From positions 12,128,501 to 12,192,500 of the forward strand of contig CM067527.1 of NCBI GenBank assembly GCA_034509925.1: a DNA stretch of 64,000 nt. Direction: 5' to 3'. The DNA is from Hirudinaria manillensis. Taxonomy: Eukaryota; Annelida; Clitellata; Hirudinida; Hirudinidae. The stretch's first letter is position 1; each line of letters begins with the position of its first letter. Of this stretch, positions 50,692 through 62,826 are shown piece by piece. The translations under genes and the position numbers were made by a program. The notes beneath the pieces were generated by a model. That model was not told the DNA's origin, made no database searches, and saw nothing but the letters and a program-made list of their open reading frames with translations.

Positions 50692-53600
50692 TTATATATC
50701 GGTTTCGGCTTGCTTATAAAACCTGTCGATCGGCGACTTTTTGCTGCACTGTGGTTTCTGTTTCGAGGAGTTGCAGTCGGATTTCGTTCTAGGGGAGCAG
50801 GTCTGTGGCTTGGCATTTCTCTGACAAGCTGCCAAGTTGTTAGGGTTGGGGGTTTTCATTGTGCCAAGAGACGTTGGCAGAGTTGAATAACCCTGGAGGC
50901 GATGTTGATGAGGGGAGGAAGTGGCCTGAGATGGCTTTGAAGTCCTAAACGGGTGGGTTTGAAGCTGGGTGTTATTGTTGATAGGCCGGGTGGCACTCGA
51001 GTTGGCCACGATGCCTTCGTCGTTCGCATCGTTCGGATTGAGAAGTATGTGATTGCCGAGACTACATTTTCTCGCTTCCGTGGATTCCTTTTTTTGTCCC
51101 ACGCTACATTTCCTTGCACATCGACAAGGCGATCTCAGAACTATGCTTAAAATTTGAAATATGGTTATGAGGCTGCCGCCGGTGAAAAAAGCCAGCAGTC
51201 CCCCGGCGTGAGCTGTTTACAAATAGAATTAATTCTGGATGAGAAAAGAATAATTTAAAATTAGGAATTGAATAATATCGAGGAATTGGAAAATCATAAA
51301 ATACAAATAAAAACGACAGACTGCAATTGCAAATAGGTAAGTTTAGGGTATAAATACCTGTCCTTGTTAAAAATATTCATCTGCTAAGAACCACTTCCAT
51401 TTTATGTTCAAAGCAAGAGGCTCCCTCGCGCATAAATAGTCGTCTTAATGAGAATGCGCAGAAAATAAACAAACGCGTCGGAAATTTTAGAGGGGCATCT
51501 CGGCATAGCTTCCGGAAGATAATCAGGCTACTGACTGCGATTTTACCGGGCTTAGTTTCACCTTTTGTTGTAATTCAAAGGGAAATTGCACAGTGGTCAA
51601 GTTTCGAAAAATACCAACCAACGTAAGTACTCCACGGCCTCCCTTCATCCTCAGAATGCCCTATTCTAGAATGAAGAGATGTCGGAGAGAATGAGGATGT
51701 CAAGGATGATGATGGAGAGGAGAAAAGTGGAGACGAGTAGCCGGCAGTTCTCATGTTGATGTCGACGAAGATGAAATTCTCTCTGGGGAGATTTTCGTTT
51801 AAGTTTTTTTTTGGTGAGAAAACAGGAAAATGGTACCCGGAGAAAGTTACCGCGTGTAATTGCTAGCATTTGTGTCTGTGAGAGTCGACACAATGGGGAG
51901 GAATTGAATGAGAGAATGAATTAATTAGCCTCAATAGAATTCAAAATCTTAAACGAGTAACTGGTGTAAACATCGTTTTATATATGTATATATGTCCAAA
52001 GTTATTTCGTCTAGATTGATGCAAATTTGCTGTCTCTCACTTCCCGCTAATGCTCTGCAAATCGCTCACGCGAAAATTAATAGGACTGGAAAGAGATTTT
52101 TTCCTTTCTTTTGTAATGGAGAAATAGAAAAACAGGAAGATCTATTAACGGAGGAAAGGCAAAAAAAAACTACGAGAAAATCTCTCGGATTGAAGAGAGT
52201 TGGGTTATTTATTAATGGGCCATCAACATTAATTCATCCGGGAAGGCTTACCTGAGTGATTGATCGTCCCTCTGGCACGAGGCCTGGGTGGAAGCGACGC
52301 TTTCTCTGAAGTGCCTGAAGGCTTGGAACAAGTCGGCATCGTTTCCAGCGAGGAGTTTGACGATGTCCGTGGAATCGACGAGTCTGGCAAACACTTCAGA
52401 AGATTCGGCTTTCTTGTGCTCAGGAGAAAGAGTTGGCAAGTCAGCGTTCAGGAATGCGTAGAGATCTCCGAGAAGGAGAGAGTTTTGCTGATGATAATGC
52501 CTCGTTTGCTGTTGTTGCTGCTGTTGCTGGAGTTGGAATTGGAGACGTTTAAGAACGTCCTGACCGTATATTCCTGTCAACATCTCGAATAAAATTCTTT
52601 TGAGCTGAGACTGTTGGGGTCTCGATAGCATGTCGTTGACATCGTTGTAAATGTTCGTATAAAAGTTTCTCAACAAGCTGTCATTCAGCATAGCCTGCCA
52701 AGTCTTCTCCATCAGCGAATTTAGTTCCGAACACAGGCCTGCAATTCTTTTCGAGCCCATTGATTTAGCTTCGTGGAAAATTTCCGAGAGAACAGACAAC
52801 GAGGCTCGAACGGATTTGTCGTTTTCCGTGGTAAACAGTTCAGATCGCTTCATTTCATGGTCTTTCAGATACTGCTGAGAGAGTTGGGCAAATGCTATTA
52901 GGCCGCTGTTCGATTCCGTAAATCTGGCCCTCAGAAGGTAGTTGAGATCTGCGAGAGAATTTTGCAGTTTGCCGGCTGTCGATTCCAACGAGGCATTCAA
53001 TCTGATCAAGTGATTTGAGCGGTTGACAAGTTGCTGTTGAATTTCTTCTACGATCTCCTTCTGAAATAGGGCTTCGTAGTGCTCAATTTCAGAAGATTTC
53101 AGTATGAAACCAACGCGAGCCGTTTCAAAGCCGGTCTCGTTGAAATGACTGTCCTGATATACTTCTTTCAGAGTAACTTTAAGTGCCATGACGTGTTCGA
53201 TAAGTCGGGCAGTATTTTCTGTTATGCCCTTGTAAAATCGTGACAAATCTTTTTGCTGGACTCTTGCCAAAAGAGCATATGGTACTAAGTGGATATCATA
53301 TCTTCCCTCTGGGGTATGACTTTTGAGCAGGGGAGAGGCTTTTCCTTGTGGAAGATGATAAACCCTAAAGCCTTCTAACTGCTCCAACATGGGCGCACTA
53401 TTTTGGAAAGCTTGATAAACTTTGGTGAAGTTGTCCATGACCTGAATGGCTGTTTCAAGCTTCCCAGAGAGTTGATTGTCTGCCATGTGGTAGAGGACCC
53501 TTCTAGCCACGGAGTCCGTTGGCGAAGCGAATTTCAGTTGCTTTACTGTTCTTTCCAATTGAGAAGCAATCTCGTGGATTTTCGACGTCAACGGCTTCAA

Positions 53601-56600
53601 CGATCGTCTGCTGACCGCTACAAATGGCGCGACGAAACCGCTTTCGTACGATTCTTGTAATCCTTTCAAAGCCACCTTCACGTGGAAGCTGATCCTCTTC
53701 ATCAGATTCGTCGTCAAAATGGCAGCCTCCTCTTTCGTCTTACTTATGGACACCACCGCAGTTTCAACCAGACGACGAATTTTGTCCACCAAGAAAGAAA
53801 GTCTAACGATGTTCTCGTAGTCTCGCTTCAGGACATCAGGATAGGACCTGGCTATGAGATCCAGCGCAGCACACCTGTCTTCGGCCGCCTTGGTTAGATG
53901 GGCGTCGTGGAGTTTCGCAGACGAGGAAGTTTGCTGAGCAAAAGAAGGAATTTGATGATAAATCGGAGCGTTGTACGACGACGATGCTGGCGAAGAAGAG
54001 GGGTACGTGGAAAAAGCGGATGTCAGCGGAAATGAGGGATTTCCGAGCGCGAGCGATGAAACTTCTGCTATTGAATAGTCCCAGTGGAAGCCATGATGCG
54101 ACTCGGGGCAGTGGTTACATAGCTTCTCCTGTTTGCTTTCTATTTCATCTGCAATCAATCAATCAAACTTTGATTTTTGTATTCGATTTTTTTTTTTGTT
54201 TTACACTTTGTTAAACACTCCAGTTTGGTTAGAATAGAGTGGAATGGCCATAAGAATTGACGGGACTGAAAATAAATAAAGAATAAAAGAGGAGAATGAA
54301 GCTTAAAAGCAAAAGATAACCCAAAAGGAAAGGATGTATGACCCAACTGTAATCCCCTTTACCTATTTCTATATGTCTCGGACCATGTGTTTTAGGACTT
54401 TAATGTTTTTTTTTTCTGCTGACAAATTCAAAAGTTTTAAAAGCAGACTTTCTTTTATTTCTCTTCTTTTCCCATTTTCTGAGCCCAGGGACAAAACAGT
54501 GGGTTTGTTGTAAGTCAGTTTTAAGTCCCTGCTGCTTCCGTGCCTTTGCAATTTTAGGGTTAGGGTAAAGGTTAGGGGTCCACTATTTCTTAATAATAAC
54601 TTTTAATAATAACAGCCAATCAGCCAATCGTTAACGTGATTAGCATCATTACGAAGGTTTCATAAGAAGTAAAAACTTTCAGGTATGATGCATTAAACGT
54701 CAAATCACTTAGTAGATTCGAGCCTTTTACGCGGGTTTTCTCCCCAAAGGAAATCCAGGTTGCAAATACGACATCTTTACTTTGCTTTTCATCGCCATCC
54801 AGGGCAGAAAGGTAGCCATCCGAGCCACTGTCCACCCAAGAGGCCAACCATGTATGGAACAAACATGGAACAACATGAACACGATACTTCTTGTCTGATC
54901 GGCACAAATTGGCATTGCACGTAAGAAATTGGGGTTTAAATAAGAAACGATGACTTTTTCGGTGTTCTTGCAAAAACAGGCGATAAGTTTTTAAAAGAAT
55001 GAATAAATGATGATGATGATGATGATCCAGCATAGAACAAAGTGCCAGCTTTGAATAATAAATATTTTGGTTCTTAAATATCGCCACAGTTTAAGCAATA
55101 TTTATACGGGCGCGTGATTATATTTATTGAAAGGAATTGGAAATAATTGATCGAAGAAATCATGAAATAAACATTATTATTTAAGATTAATGACTCGAAG
55201 ACAAATTCTTCAAAGAGAGTTGATGAATGAAGATAGAAAGAAGAAATGGAAAATAAATACTTTCGAAAGTAAAGATAGAGAAATTGACAAAAGACAGAAG
55301 TTCTGCAAGGCAAACAACTCACTGATCCATCAGTGGAGATTACCGGCAATGTTTAATGACGCATTTTCAGACATTAAAAGTGTAAAATAAAATGAAAATT
55401 TTTTTTTTAAAATGGACGCACATTCAACTACAGCAGAAGTATTAAATGCTCCGGAGGGAAGAATTGAAAATGGATGTTTGAGAACTCAGTTGACAGGGAG
55501 ATCGTGAAGGATGAGAGAGAATTAAATGATAATTTCAATCCAAAACATAATAATAATAACGACGACAAAACTAAATAATAAATAAAATATAAAGGAAGGC
55601 ACACCTTAGGTCCAGGTACGTATAAGAGAGGCATCGTAGACTTAAATTATTCAAAAGGCAGTCATACGCGGGTACTCAACACTGACCAACAAATGACTTT
55701 TGACGCTCCTTGTCCGACTAATGGGGGGTGGATCCCACCTCTCCCCCCGTTCGGGTGACACCTTCTCGAATCTTCTCGTTTCAGTCACGGAGTTCTTTGC
55801 AAAGTCGGAAACAACGATGGATGCCGACATCCGTGATTAACATAATTCGGGAAATAACCTTCTAAAAATAAGTCCACGACTTGGCATTTCAGTCATTTTA
55901 ATTATCTCCATTTTTCGAATGTCATTTCATGCACTGGCGAGTCCCACGGACGACATTCAAATCTCCTGTGGAGTCGTGGACGGGCCTAAATAAAAAGTGC
56001 CGAGTAATCTAATAAGGTTGCTAGGAGTCATGTAATTACAACCGTTAAAGAACGTAACTTTAGCGGACGATTCGGAGCCATTTAACTACTGAACAATCGA
56101 GTCTCTCTCGGAGCATAGATTGCAGAGTGCGACGTCGCATGCAAAGACGGGCACGTAAAAATCAAGGAAAGGTCAGAGTTCACGACCCAGGGGGTCATAT
56201 AAAGTTGGTGAAACAGGATTAAGCGATGTTTATTAGGCCCTCACAAACCTAATAAACTCTCAACCTACTCGCAATTAACTACTGACGCATGTGGCTGAGT
56301 CGACGGCATCTTCTACGAGTCGTCCATCGAACGGCCAGAGAGAATAGAAAGCGGGACTGGCTTCGGCCGAGTTCGCCTCGGGCCGTCCGTGATGGGAAAG
56401 TCGGAATAAATAATGAAACGGATTTCCGAGGGAACAGAAATGGATTCCAGAAGAAACTCTTGGAAATGGAGAGTTGTTGAACGATGGTAGGAGCTGGCGA
56501 GGATATGATCGATAGTTTTGATGTCTTATTTTTTTCTTCGGTCCTTGTTGTTATTGTTGTTGTTCTTATTGTTGTTTTTGTTGCTTTTCGCCGATCTCGG

Positions 56601-57292
56601 CAAAAAAGAAAATCATTAATTTTCAACCACTGCCTTTTGAAAAAGATGCACCACGTCTCGCTAGGAGGTTTCGTTGGAATTATTGTTTCAAAATTCAATT
56701 TGGCTGACTTACAAGCATTCGAAGCAATTTCAGGGGCAAATTCGAAAAACGTTCGCAAAACCAGAACACAAAACGAGACTCGGGCATTAGTTAGACCGGC
56801 GAAGGTGACGTCGCAGACGTATATCCGGTTGTTTCTCGAAGAAATGTTTTGGTGCCGAAATGTCAGGCATATTTACGTCTGAATGTTTATTTCTTCGCAA
56901 GTTTAAACTCACCGATGGAGGGACTGACACATGAAACGTGTTGAAACATTGAACAGTGTCCGCTGGTGGATTCTGAAAGTTAAAAGCTTTCTAGAATTTC
57001 TCTAGATTAAATTTATTTATGTCGCTTTAAATTTTTTATTTCAAATTGCGTTTAAATCAGATTAAATTATTTTTTCGACTAATTTAAAAACAATTTTTGG
57101 CTCCAGGTCGAAAGCTTTCCAGGACTTGAAGTTAACTTCGTTAAAAAAAAACTGGGAATTAAATTATTAAATTACTAATTGATTTATTTTAACGTTAATT
57201 AATATAAAATGAATTATTTTGACGCCGGGTTTTCGAATAAAAGTGCAAATATTTTCGAACGAAGCGACTTTTGATGGAAATTACACTTCACT

Positions 57293-60300: not shown

Positions 60301-62826
60301 GCTTAAAACTCTGACAGCGAATCGCATCTTGATTTCGAGGTGTTCCACAGGTCAACAAGTGCTCATCGACGCCTTCTCTCTTATCAGTGAATATCAGGCG
60401 CGGCCAATAAAAGCGGATACGTACCTGATAAGGGCTCGGTCACGTGGCGGGGGTCACGTGATGGGATTAATATGCAAGATAGGTTGTGAAATAGTATTAT
60501 TTATATTTTACCAAGTCATCAATTACGGAACAATTGTAATGTTAAAGTTATGATGACAGTAACAACAACATCTGGCGGAATGTATAAAAGTGAAGGGAAA
60601 TACAAATCGATATATTATAATAAAGTATATACTATAATAAAAGAATAGATAAGTCTATAAAATAATTATTAATATTAAATATTATTTTTCCATAATTTAA
60701 TTTTATTATATTCTGTGATAGAAAAAGTGGTAATAAAAATTGTACCCTAAAGAGCTTCTTCTTTTTTCCAAATTAAACACTTCCTGATGAAAATAGTTTT
60801 ATGAAAAACGTAGGAAGTTGTTAACGTGAAGCTCGTGATGGAATGAATTAAATTGATTGATCGTTCTGTTCAATGAATGATAGAATGAATGAACGAATGA
60901 TTGAACGAATGAATGAATGATTGAATGAACGAATGAATGAGTGAATGAATGAATGATTGATTGAATGAACGAATGAATGATTGAACGAATGAATGAATGA
61001 ATGAACGGATGAATGAATGAATGATTGAACGAATGAATGAATAAATGAACGAACGAATGAATGAGTGAATGAATGAATGAGTGAATGAATGAACGAATGA
61101 ATGAGTGAATGAATGAATGAATGAAAGAATTAATGTTAGAGGAATTTCTCCAATCAGTAATTGTCCACAAGAACCGGTGAAACTGATTTTAATTTGCATT
61201 TTAAACCAACCGACCGACCAGGCAGCCAACCAACCTTCTCTGATGTTGGCCCAGTGCGGCACGCAGTGGCATCTGTTGAGAATCAATTTCTCCACGCACT
61301 CCTCCAGACACTGACTTCCACGAGACGCCTGGAAAACAAGGAACAGATGGAGTGAACGAAGAGTGAAGAGAGTGGAGGTTAGGGCCAGGGAGTGGACTCG
61401 TCAGGATCGGAATGAATTTGATTGGCAAATAAGGGGACAGGAGACGAATGAAGAGAATTCGTCGGAGTGGAAAATTGGAGAATGAGTAAAAGAACGGTCG
61501 GACGGATGAATGGAATGAGTGAGTAAAAGACTAAAGCCCGCGGACAATCACATCAATGGGCGGGCTTAATGGATAAGCCACGATGCTGATTGGTCGAAGA
61601 TTGAGAATGGAAGGATGGCTCGATAAAAGTTGTTAATACTCTCGTTCGCACCCACGGGTCGATCTGGAAAGCGACCCCGACAAAATTCCCCGTCTTAACG
61701 AGCCAATAATCTTTAGTCCACCCCTGCAACGTCAACTGATCATCCATCACGAACCACCATTTTGGCAGAGTTATCCTTAACACCTCCCTACGAGATGGAC
61801 TCGTTTTTGTTCTTTCATTCATCGATCACTTATTTTTTGTCTTACACAACACACGCCCACTCGCTCACTCACTCACTCACTCACTCACTCACTCACTCAC
61901 TCACTCACTCACTCACTCACTCACTCACTCACTCACTCACTCACTCACTCACTCACTCACTCACTCACTCACTCACTCACTCACTCACTCACTCACTCAC
62001 TCACTCACTCACTCATTCACTCACTCACTCACTCACTCACTCACTCACTCACTCACTCACTCACTCACTCACTCACTCACTCACTCACTCACTCACTCAC
62101 TCACTCACTCACTCACTCACTCACTCACTCACTCACTCACTCACTCACTCACTCACTCACTCACTCACTCACTCACTCACTCACTCACTCACTCACTCAC
62201 TCACTCACTCACTCACTCACTCACTCACTCACTCACTCACTCACTCACTCACTCACTCACTCACTCACTCACTCACTCACTCACTCACTCACTCACTCAC
62301 TCACTCACTCACTCACTCACTCACTCACTCACTCACTCACTCACTCACTCACTCACTCACTCACTCACTCACTCACTCACTCACTCACTCATTCACTCAT
62401 TCACTCACTCACTCACTCACTCACTCACTCACTCACTCACTCACTCACTCACTCACTCACTCACTCACTCACTCACTCACTCACTCACTCACTCACTCAC
62501 TCACTCACTCACTCACTCACTCACTCACTCACTCACTCACTCACTCACTCACTCTCTCGCTCGCCCAACCACCCACTCACCCTTCCACCTAGCCACCCAC
62601 TTACTCGCTCAGAAGTCAGGATCGTAAAGACTAACTTCCGGTTGTCCGTCGTACAGAGTGATTTTCACGAACTTATTCAAGGGCAGAAATATTTGACCCC
62701 TGCTGAAGGTCAGAAAGTTAGAAGCAACCCTTTGGTGATCAGGTACCAAGACGATGCCCTTGTGACCTCTTGAGTTCGGAACGTGCTCGTAAAGTTGCGA
62801 GTTGAAAAGGAAACTCAATCTTTTAG
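50692..62826 (-). CDS. DEG/ENaC channel subunit with a giant extracellular insertion (partial, N-terminus outside)
   Basis: Six exons are visible on the minus strand: 62826 to 62636 (or 62605), 61328-61235, 56972-56913, 54148-52252, 51782-51631 and 51212-50692. All internal phases agree except that the first donor is uncertain. Order of hallmarks: FLFNS and HKGIVLVPDHQ...FLPLNKFVKITL (palm), QCLEECVEKLILNRCHCVPHW (cysteine-rich region), HCSMFQHVSCVSPS, KLCNHCPESHHGFHWDYS, then about 600 extra residues, then ENFIFVDINM (pre-TM2 strand) and TM2 GGLLAFFTGGSLITIFQIL with the G-x-S filter, followed by a basic, Ser/Asn-rich 140-aa cytoplasmic tail. The insertion (about 52270-54060) is rich in helix-forming residues and has five N-glycosylation sequons, fitting an extracellular position. 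TM1 lies beyond the window or was not found. Sodium or peptide gating cannot be judged. Confidence 0.85.
54555..54579. repeat. Short TTAGGG-like stretch
   Basis: TTTTAGGGTTAGGGTAAAGG, in the intron before the giant exon. Confidence 0.5.
54580..56912. other. DEG/ENaC intron, no exon recognised
   Basis: The flanking exons join in phase, so nothing is needed here. The frames at 54620-55087, 56279-56758 (-) and 56484-56882 (+) are low-complexity or unsupported. Confidence 0.5.
59552..59707 (+). CDS. Small plus-strand frame, 51 aa, unknown
   Basis: ATG to TGA, reading MQLQANKRRPGQAID then EEVNALKALKNYQKRRLLEEQ. It is a strongly charged, helix-like protein. Alternatively, the bases caattacag at 59554-59562 are a splice acceptor and this is the last exon of a larger plus-strand gene. 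The composition differs clearly from the AT-rich surroundings. I recognise no family. Confidence 0.4.
   Translation: MQLQANKRRPGQAIDDGSEEVNALKALKNYQKRRLLEEQMNVLVLSGEFMQ
60439..60460. promoter_or_regulatory. Two GTCACGTG E-boxes
   Basis: GGTCACGTG at 60438 and GGTCACGTG at 60452 are spaced 14 bases apart in a GC-rich patch, with a CCAAT box nearby (60394-60398). GTCACGTG is the core of the CLEAR/M-box motif bound by TFEB/MITF/USF. Which transcript it controls is unclear. Confidence 0.4.
60870..61132. repeat. (GAAT)n imperfect repeat
   Basis: Degenerate GAATGAATGA/GAACGAATGA units in a channel intron, with enough variation to suggest an older tract than the CACT block. Confidence 0.95.
61864..62553. 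repeat. (CACT)n microsatellite, about 690 bp
   Basis: Almost pure ACTC/CACT units with only three CATT interruptions (about 62014, 62392 and 62399), in the intron between the channel's palm exon and its cysteine-rich exon. The long HSLT reading frame across it is an artefact. Confidence 0.98.

What the first reader, a model, noticed from the sequence alone, without database searches (positions are those of the whole stretch)
52252..54148. DEG/ENaC channel with a ~600-residue extracellular insertion in a single giant exon
In ASIC, ENaC and degenerin subunits the last cysteine-rich segment (C-x-C...C...Y) is followed within about 20-30 residues by the pre-TM2 strand (E-N-[IL]-x-x-L/V-x-[IV]). 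Here KLCNHCPESHHGFHWDYS and ENFIFVDINM are separated by about 600 residues, all in one uninterrupted 1,897-bp exon whose phases fit both neighbours. The inserted region is mostly amphipathic helix (for example VDKIRRLVETAVV, IEHVMALKVTLKEVY), has five sequons, a Ser/Pro-rich start, one poly-Gln tract and few cysteines. I know of no described channel of this type with such an insert; it could act as a long tether, ligand-binding or mechanical domain.
Basis: partly seen in the sequence, partly recalled or inferred. Interest (0 to 1): 0.8.

Follow-up and report, generated by a model that had tools for sequence, protein, structure and literature searches.

The report
Ion channel with giant extracellular insert
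A leech genome encodes a small family of acid-sensing-type sodium channels that each carry an extra, mostly helical domain of roughly 500 to 600 amino acids on the outside of the cell, right where such channels usually receive the signals that open them.

Summary
The 1,897-bp exon (54148-52252, minus strand) is open, has good splice sites and fits the phases of its neighbours. I extended the gene to nine exons over 22 kb, including a 60-nt mini-exon at 56972-56913 and three exons beyond the window. The joined protein scores over the Pfam DEG/ENaC cut-off (36.3 against 23.6 bits); 607 residues separate its last Cys motif from the pre-TM2 strand. It is not a one-off: at least four other channel genes of this genome (probably the leech Hirudinaria manillensis) carry large helical inserts at the same place; the three I modelled are 503-523 residues. 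A phase-2 intron just before pre-TM2 marks these genes and was not seen in five other channel loci. The best-preserved relative is clearly ASIC-like (best PDB match ASIC2, E 2.5e-49); the insert lies at the knuckle helix alpha-6. The window gene is a fast-diverging member: its insert shows no sequence similarity to the others, so common origin rests on position, introns, the channel core and helical character. My best reading is an extracellular receptor or gating module. That function is inferred; no transcript, relative from another species or confident structure was available.

The parts
62636..62826 (-). exon: palm strands (AKRLSFLFNSQLYEHV...GIVLVPDHQ...), phase 1 in, phase 0 out
   Evidence: splice sites TTATTTCAG / GTTAGTC; aligns to L024/L029/L030 palm
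61235..61328 (-). exon: first thumb Cys segment SQCLEECVEKLILNRCHCVPHW, phase 0 in, phase 1 out
   Evidence: tblastn to own-genome channels E 0.002; Pfam ASC hit below cut-off on this ORF alone
56913..56972 (-). 60-nt mini-exon, phase 1-1, HCSMFQHVSCVSPSI; not mentioned in the finding
   Evidence: best of three candidates of a splice-constrained search; donor GTGAGT, pyrimidine-rich acceptor; adding it raises Pfam ASC to 36.3 bits and gives the ASIC5-like CVSP..D.IE match
52252..54148 (-). giant exon: last Cys segment (DEIESKQEKLCNHCPESHHGFHWDYS) followed by the whole insert, phase 1 in, phase 2 out
52254..54074 (-). the insert itself, 607 residues (S/P-rich first ~55 residues, then helical, one poly-Gln tract)
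   Evidence: length, composition, sequons and amphipathicity; AlphaFold2 gives helices but pLDDT 35.5, not usable
51619..51782 (-). exon: pre-TM2 strand RENFIFVDINM plus ~25-residue Ser-rich extension, phase 2 in, phase 1 out
   Evidence: phase-2 intron at the same place in L024, L029, L030 and, by its acceptor only, L025
50692..51212 (-). last exon: TM2 (AHAGGLLAFFTGGSLITIFQILSIVL, GGS filter-like triplet), cytosolic tail, stop TAA

Best explanation
This is a real protein-coding gene for a divergent ASIC-type DEG/ENaC subunit. It belongs to a subfamily that acquired an extracellular helical domain of about 500-600 residues between the last Cys motif and the pre-TM2 strand, where alpha-6 of the knuckle sits in ASIC and FaNaC structures. 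The insert is an inherited part of the subfamily: the genes share a phase-2 intron at its 3' edge, and the window core is closest to two other insert-bearing genes. In the window gene, L029 and L030 the exon that carries the last Cys motif runs straight on into the insert. Mechanism (inferred): each subunit carries the helical domain on the outer corner of the trimer, at the finger/knuckle interface, which in FaNaC1 forms the agonist pocket. There it works as a receptor or gating module whose binding to a ligand or partner protein moves finger and thumb and so opens or tunes the pore. Its fast divergence between paralogs suggests different partners for different subunits. Shown: the exon, frame, splice phases, family membership, position, and recurrence in paralogs. 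Inferred: common origin of all five inserts, helical fold, extracellular exposure in a trimer, and the gating role.
For: Nine exons join in one frame with no stop, all with GT-AG introns. Pfam ASC E 4.5e-9, 36.3 bits against a cut-off of 23.6. Of 15 own-genome channels compared, the window core is closest to insert-bearing L024 and L030: Smith-Waterman z 21.4 and 17.2 against 100 shuffles, next L008 8.8, L002 8.6; blastp L024 4.7e-9; phmmer L024 3.3e-7, L008 3.7e-7. PDB best for the window core is ASIC5 at 3e-5, then ASIC1 at 0.011. Paralogs with inserts: L024 523 aa, L029 503, L030 516; L025 by similarity to the L024 insert, E 4e-5. L024 is ASIC-like: ASIC2 2.5e-49 against ENaC-alpha 1.1e-24 and FaNaC 2e-23; its insert falls between ASIC2 residues ~380 and ~394. 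L029: ASIC1 1.6e-30. Phase-2 intron before (R/M)(E/S)N in the window gene, L024, L029, L030, and by acceptor in L025; coding runs on through that place in L017, L019, L021, L022, L026. Amphipathic period near 100 degrees in the four modelled inserts, z 4.1, 5.2, 3.7, 2.7. FaNaC1 paper, passages: the agonist pocket is formed by finger alpha1-3 and alpha6 of the adjacent subunit (PMC11026163).
Against: No transcript evidence. The window insert has no detectable sequence similarity to any other insert. An own-genome search with the L024 insert at E <= 1 found only itself, so the L025 link rests on the search of the fetched loci alone. Some splice sites of the models were chosen because they keep the frame; L030 needs one assumed GT donor and a GC donor. 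Before the mini-exon was added, phmmer ranked single-exon L008 first and L024 twelfth of 15, and even now L024 and L008 are nearly tied by phmmer; L029, also insert-bearing, ranks low (phmmer 13th of the 14 rows shown, z 6.4). The window subunit is degenerate where L024 is canonical: FPAVTICN reads VTGLTVCN, one Cys of the last motif is missing, and TM2 has Q where L024, L029 and L030 have E (single-exon L008 also has Q), so it may be a modulatory or silent subunit. AlphaFold2 models of the insert are not usable. Ligand or force sensing is untested.
Confidence: 0.62

Rival explanations
1. The insert is a mechanical tether or spacer that links the channel to the matrix, cuticle or a neighbouring cell, so that pull on it opens the pore.
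For: Long, charged, helical, with 5 sequons; extracellular tethers have been proposed for mechanosensitive ENaC (PMC7958617, start of abstract in the search listing).
Against: No adhesion or matrix-binding domain is recognisable in Pfam; nothing tested functionally.
Confidence: 0.25
2. The insert is a tolerated, weakly constrained expansion (a spacer or shield) without a specific role, as low-complexity loops are in this gene.
For: The window gene also has a ~55-residue Ser/Ala-rich expansion after TM1 and a Ser-rich one before TM2; no sequence conservation between the window insert and the others.
Against: Inserts of similar length (503-607) and helical periodicity in the four modelled genes; L029 and L030 align over almost the whole insert at 28% identity, so it is constrained there; the window insert is open throughout and has no simple repeat beyond the Ser/Pro-rich start and one poly-Gln.
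Confidence: 0.2
3. Gene-model artefact: the giant exon belongs to another transcript, or the insert is a retained intron.
For: No RNA data; the core is divergent and single exons of it score below the Pfam cut-off.
Against: One open frame of 631 codons in the exon, phases fit on both sides; the exon starts with the expected Cys segment at the same phase-1 split Asp codon as L024 and ends at the same phase-2 intron; codon score of the insert frame above all 200 shuffles, although the reverse strand scores as high in that test; inserts at the same place in paralogs.
Confidence: 0.05
4. The window gene is an accessory or non-conducting subunit, or a decaying gene, of the insert-bearing group.
For: Loss of FP in the FPAVTIC motif, of one motif Cys and of the TM2 Glu; very low similarity to its relatives; three simple expansions.
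Against: Exons and splice sites intact over the nine exons found, no stop or frameshift in 1,176 codons; GxS triplet kept; single-exon L008 also lacks the TM2 Glu.
Confidence: 0.3

Closest known systems
ASIC1/ASIC2/ASIC5 (acid-sensing ion channels) and spiralian ASICs such as that of the annelid Owenia (PMC9949801, passages seen)
   Same: Best PDB matches of L024, L029 and (weakly) of the window core; same order of TM1, finger, palm, thumb Cys segments, pre-TM2, TM2
   Different: ASIC2 has 13 residues where the alignment of L024 breaks off for the insert; proton gating of the leech channels is unknown
Single-exon DEG/ENaC channels of the same genome (L001-L008, L032-L035)
   Same: Same superfamily (Pfam ASC); a knuckle spacer longer than in ASIC
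   Different: About 60-70 residues in the 7 of 12 measured, not 500-600, between Cys motif and pre-TM2; no introns in the coding frame
C. elegans EGAS channels (EGF plus ASC domain; PMC10424705, passages seen)
   Same: A DEG/ENaC channel with an added extracellular domain
   Different: Added domain is EGF-type; its place in EGAS was not checked here
MEC-4 type degenerins with an extracellular regulatory domain (recalled)
   Same: Insertion in the ectodomain that tunes gating
   Different: About 20 residues and elsewhere in the ectodomain (recalled, not tested)

Membership tests
DEG/ENaC (Pfam PF00858 ASC) | Score over the family's curated cut-off | tested here: met
   36.3 bits against 23.6, E 4.5e-9; 30.9 bits without the mini-exon
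DEG/ENaC (Pfam PF00858 ASC) | TM1, large Cys-rich ectodomain, TM2 with G/S-x-S | tested here: met
   RFFWLVVLLTS..., thumb Cys segments, GGLLAFFTGGSLITIF; by sequence only
DEG/ENaC (Pfam PF00858 ASC) | FPxVTxC motif after TM1 | tested here: inconclusive
   Only VTGLTVCNLN remains in the window gene; intact in L024
DEG/ENaC (Pfam PF00858 ASC) | N-terminal HG gating motif | tested here: inconclusive
   First exon not found in the readable upstream DNA; L024 has TTLHGIKYAF
DEG/ENaC (Pfam PF00858 ASC) | Trimeric cation channel | not testable with these tools
   needs expression
ASIC | Closer to ASICs than to ENaC or FaNaC | tested here: met
   L024 and L029 clearly; window core only weakly, ASIC5 3e-5; best hits among solved structures, no tree
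ASIC | Compact knuckle between the last Cys motif and pre-TM2 | tested here: not met
   503-607 residues in the four modelled genes
ASIC | Proton gating | not testable with these tools
   needs electrophysiology
EGAS-type channel with added EGF domain | EGF-like domain in the ectodomain | tested here: not met
   No EGF family at E <= 1 in the joined protein

The most novel reading that the evidence does not exclude
A leech-expanded class of ASIC-type channels in which each subunit carries an autonomous, independently evolving helical receptor domain in place of knuckle helix alpha-6. Three such domains would form a crown on the trimer, and the class would gate on stimuli (protein partners or host-derived ligands) not known for DEG/ENaC channels.
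Probability: 0.25. Interest if true: 0.85.

Novelty: new variant of a known kind. Interest (0 to 1): 0.62.

Why it matters
DEG/ENaC channels are gated by protons, peptides, proteases or force, and the finger/knuckle corner takes part in this. A lineage that has put a 500-600-residue domain exactly there, in at least five genes, is a natural experiment on what that corner can be made to sense, and deleting or swapping the domain is a direct test. It also warns that gene models of annelid ASICs may be wrongly cut or discarded because of the size of this exon.

Tried and rejected
Sequence homology of the window insert to anything: own genome (only a chance-level second hit, E 0.88), Pfam (LARP1_HEAT E 0.03-0.08, far below cut-off), PDB (best E 0.27), profile comparison with the other inserts against reversed controls. 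In one search L029/L030 against L024 gave P 0.026 (reversed 0.4), suggestive only; L029/L030 against the window insert gave 0.22 (reversed 0.36) and L024 against it 0.54 (reversed 0.076), that is nothing. Rejected as chance.

Structure: AlphaFold2 without relatives gave pLDDT 35.5 and 40.4; all-helical, but I ran no fold search on them.

Own-profile scan for the missing N-terminal exon and a regex for HG motifs in the readable upstream DNA: nothing convincing. L026: 2 kb between Cys exon and pre-TM2, not resolved; not counted as insert-bearing. One TM2-only match (C2:9768060, E 0.3) was not examined. An insert cut up by introns, as in L025, would escape my ORF check of the other loci.

Literature: the rows listed (15 of 80 papers; 15 of 17; 10 of 353; 10 of 35; 12 of 488; 8 of 172; 8 of 36), and passages of PMC9949801, PMC9822975, PMC10424705 and PMC11026163, show no report of such an insert or of leech ASICs. 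Only open-licence PMC papers are covered and most were seen as listings.
Full report
What was checked. The finding lies on the minus strand. The frame 54158-52248 is open for 636 codons; within the exon the five other frames hold 17-36 stops and no open run over 110 codons. The exon 54148-52252 has a good acceptor and the donor CAG|GTAAGC. It begins with a split Asp codon (G|AT) and ends in phase 2, so that the codon for R of RENFIFVDINM is split AG|A.

The gene. Reading the neighbouring DNA by eye and then by script, I found more of the gene: exons at 62826-62636, 61328-61235, 51782-51619 and 51212-50692 in the window, and three exons beyond its right edge in the same contig (C2:12197832-12197920, 12200229-12200386, 12200921-12201278), which carry a finger Cys segment, the finger, and TM1 with a degenerate FPAVTIC motif. 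A search of the 7-kb intron for a small phase 1-1 exon with two Cys gave three candidates. One, 56972-56913, has a perfect GTGAGT donor and reads HCSMFQHVSCVSPSI, like exon 7 of paralog L024 (CSLAKSFLCV) and like ASIC5 (CDLQKYFSCVSPVLD). The nine exons join without a stop into 1,176 codons, and all eight introns are GT-AG. Some sites (for instance the ends of the TM1 and pre-TM2 exons) I chose because they keep the frame, so the phase fit is not independent evidence there. The Pfam score for ASC rises from 30.9 to 36.3 bits with the mini-exon; the cut-off is 23.6 (the second query ended shortly after TM2).

The insert. From the residue after HWDY to the residue before REN there are 607 residues, with 12.5% Leu, 3 Cys, 5 sequons, a Ser/Pro-rich first ~55 residues and one poly-Gln. 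The mean hydrophobic moment at 100 degrees is 4.1 standard deviations above shuffles, with the best angle at 95 degrees; the ectodomains of eight single-exon channels of the same genome give z from 0.1 to 2.4. AlphaFold2 on the single sequence makes only helices but with pLDDT 35.5, and 40.4 for the C-terminal part, so no fold can be claimed. Pfam and PDB searches give nothing significant.

The organism. The assembly has 23 contigs and 148.43 Mb, with C6 of 11,463,318 bases and four hirudin-family matches on C4, three of them over the cut-off. The Hirudinaria manillensis assembly of PMC10671345 has 22 scaffolds of 148.59 Mb, N50 11.46 Mb, 13 chromosomes, plus a mitochondrial genome (passages); another published assembly of this species is larger, 157.5 Mb (PMC10087013, passages). 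I infer that the window is from this leech or a very close relative.

Paralogs. Pfam ASC finds 66 stretches in the genome at E <= 10, 55 at 0.001. I fetched 28 loci: 12 single-exon genes (L001-L008, L032-L035) and 16 stretches with intron-containing genes (L016-L031; stretches, not genes). In 7 of the 12 single-exon genes my motif search measured 60-70 residues between the last Cys motif and pre-TM2; in the other 5 it failed, but the printed sequences are of similar length. Among the 16 stretches, four hold large helical inserts at the place in question: L024 on C9 (523 residues, most of it in one 1,491-nt exon flanked by phase-2 introns), L029 and L030 on C12 (503 and 516 residues), and L025 on C10, where open frames split by introns lie between the Cys exon and TM2 and one of them matches the L024 insert (E 4e-5; a second, collinear one E 0.11). 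L025 was not modelled, and a whole-genome search with the L024 insert at E <= 1 found only L024 itself. The L030 model needs one assumed donor and one GC donor. L026 is unresolved. In the other stretches I saw no open frame over 150 codons at that place; I did not model those genes, and an insert split by introns would be missed.

Are the inserts of one origin? L029 and L030 align over almost the whole insert (28% identity over 438 residues, E 3e-67; hhalign probability 100). L024 and L025 match in part. L029/L030 against L024 is only suggestive (P 0.026), and the window insert matches none of them. What joins them is position, gene structure and the channel core. A phase-2 intron directly before the pre-TM2 residues (R/M)(E/S)N is present in the window gene, L024, L029 and L030 (in L030 with a GC donor), and L025 has an acceptor at the same place. 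In L017, L019, L021, L022 and L026 coding runs on through that place (read from the printed sequence; L017 and L019 hold two genes each, of which one was seen). The phase-1 intron with the split Asp codon before the last Cys segment is shared by the window gene and L024; L029 has a phase-1 intron there too. With the mini-exon included, the window core is closest to L024 and L030 among 15 own-genome channels: Smith-Waterman z 21.4 and 17.2, then L008 8.8, L002 8.6, L003 8.5; L029 has only 6.4. By blastp L024 leads (4.7e-9); by phmmer L024 and L008 are nearly tied (3.3e-7 and 3.7e-7) and L029 is near the bottom. Before the mini-exon was found, phmmer put L008 first and L024 twelfth of 15. I take common origin as likely, not proven.

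Which kind of channel. The spliced L024 protein (967 aa) matches ASIC2 in the PDB at 2.5e-49 and ASIC1 at 3e-45, against ENaC-alpha 1.1e-24 and FaNaC 2e-23. L029, from the finger on, matches ASIC1 at 1.6e-30 against FaNaC at 9e-13. The window core matches ASIC5 at 3e-5 and then ASIC1 at 0.011. In the alignment of L024 with ASIC2 the insert falls between residues ~380 and ~394. By recall of the ASIC1 fold this is between strand beta-9 and helix alpha-6 of the knuckle. In the FaNaC1 structures alpha-6 of the knuckle faces the finger helices of the neighbouring subunit and helps to form the neuropeptide pocket; [quoted passage not shown]

How it most likely works. A helical domain placed at that corner can reach ligands or partner proteins and pass movement to finger and thumb. 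I therefore favour a receptor or gating module, with a mechanical tether as the main rival. A passive spacer is possible, since this gene also has simple Ser-rich expansions after TM1 and before TM2. The window subunit has lost several residues that L024 keeps (FP of FPAVTIC, one motif Cys, Glu in TM2) and may be an accessory subunit. All of this is inference.

Novelty. ASICs were found in spiralians, including the annelid Owenia, in 2023 (PMC9949801, passages); the word leech does not occur in its main text. The rows listed by seven searches of open-licence papers (only part of the hits is listed) show none that reports a knuckle insert of this kind. I rate it a new variant of a known kind.

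Noticed in passing
L022:2574-7350 (own genome C8:4566073-4570849): A DEG/ENaC gene with a C-type lectin domain (Pfam Lectin_C E 3.5e-13 on two joined ORF pieces) and a long mucin-like Ser/Thr repeat between FPSVTLCN and the finger: a lectin-channel chimera, if one gene. ASC E 2.5e-14 on its TM1 exon.
   Followed up: partly
L009:8921-9278 (own genome C2:12200921-12201278): The window gene's TM1 exon carries a ~55-residue Ser/Ala/Pro-rich expansion between TM1 and the VTxC motif; with the Ser-rich piece before TM2 it shows a tolerance for loop growth in this gene.
   Followed up: partly
window 61860-62560: About 700 bp of nearly pure GTGA tetranucleotide repeat inside an intron of the gene; similar long repeats lie in the DNA upstream.
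   Followed up: no
own genome C2:9975593-10033356: A cluster of six intronless DEG/ENaC channel genes (L001, L002, L005-L008) within 60 kb.
   Followed up: no
L012 (own genome C2:12229312-12231999, minus strand): Long open frame that looks like leucine-rich repeats (by eye) upstream of the channel gene.
   Followed up: no
L030 / L031 (own genome C12:9186000-9209000): The TM1 exon in L031 may be the 5' end of the L030 channel gene, some 17 kb upstream; L031 also holds a frame that looks like reverse transcriptase by eye.
   Followed up: no
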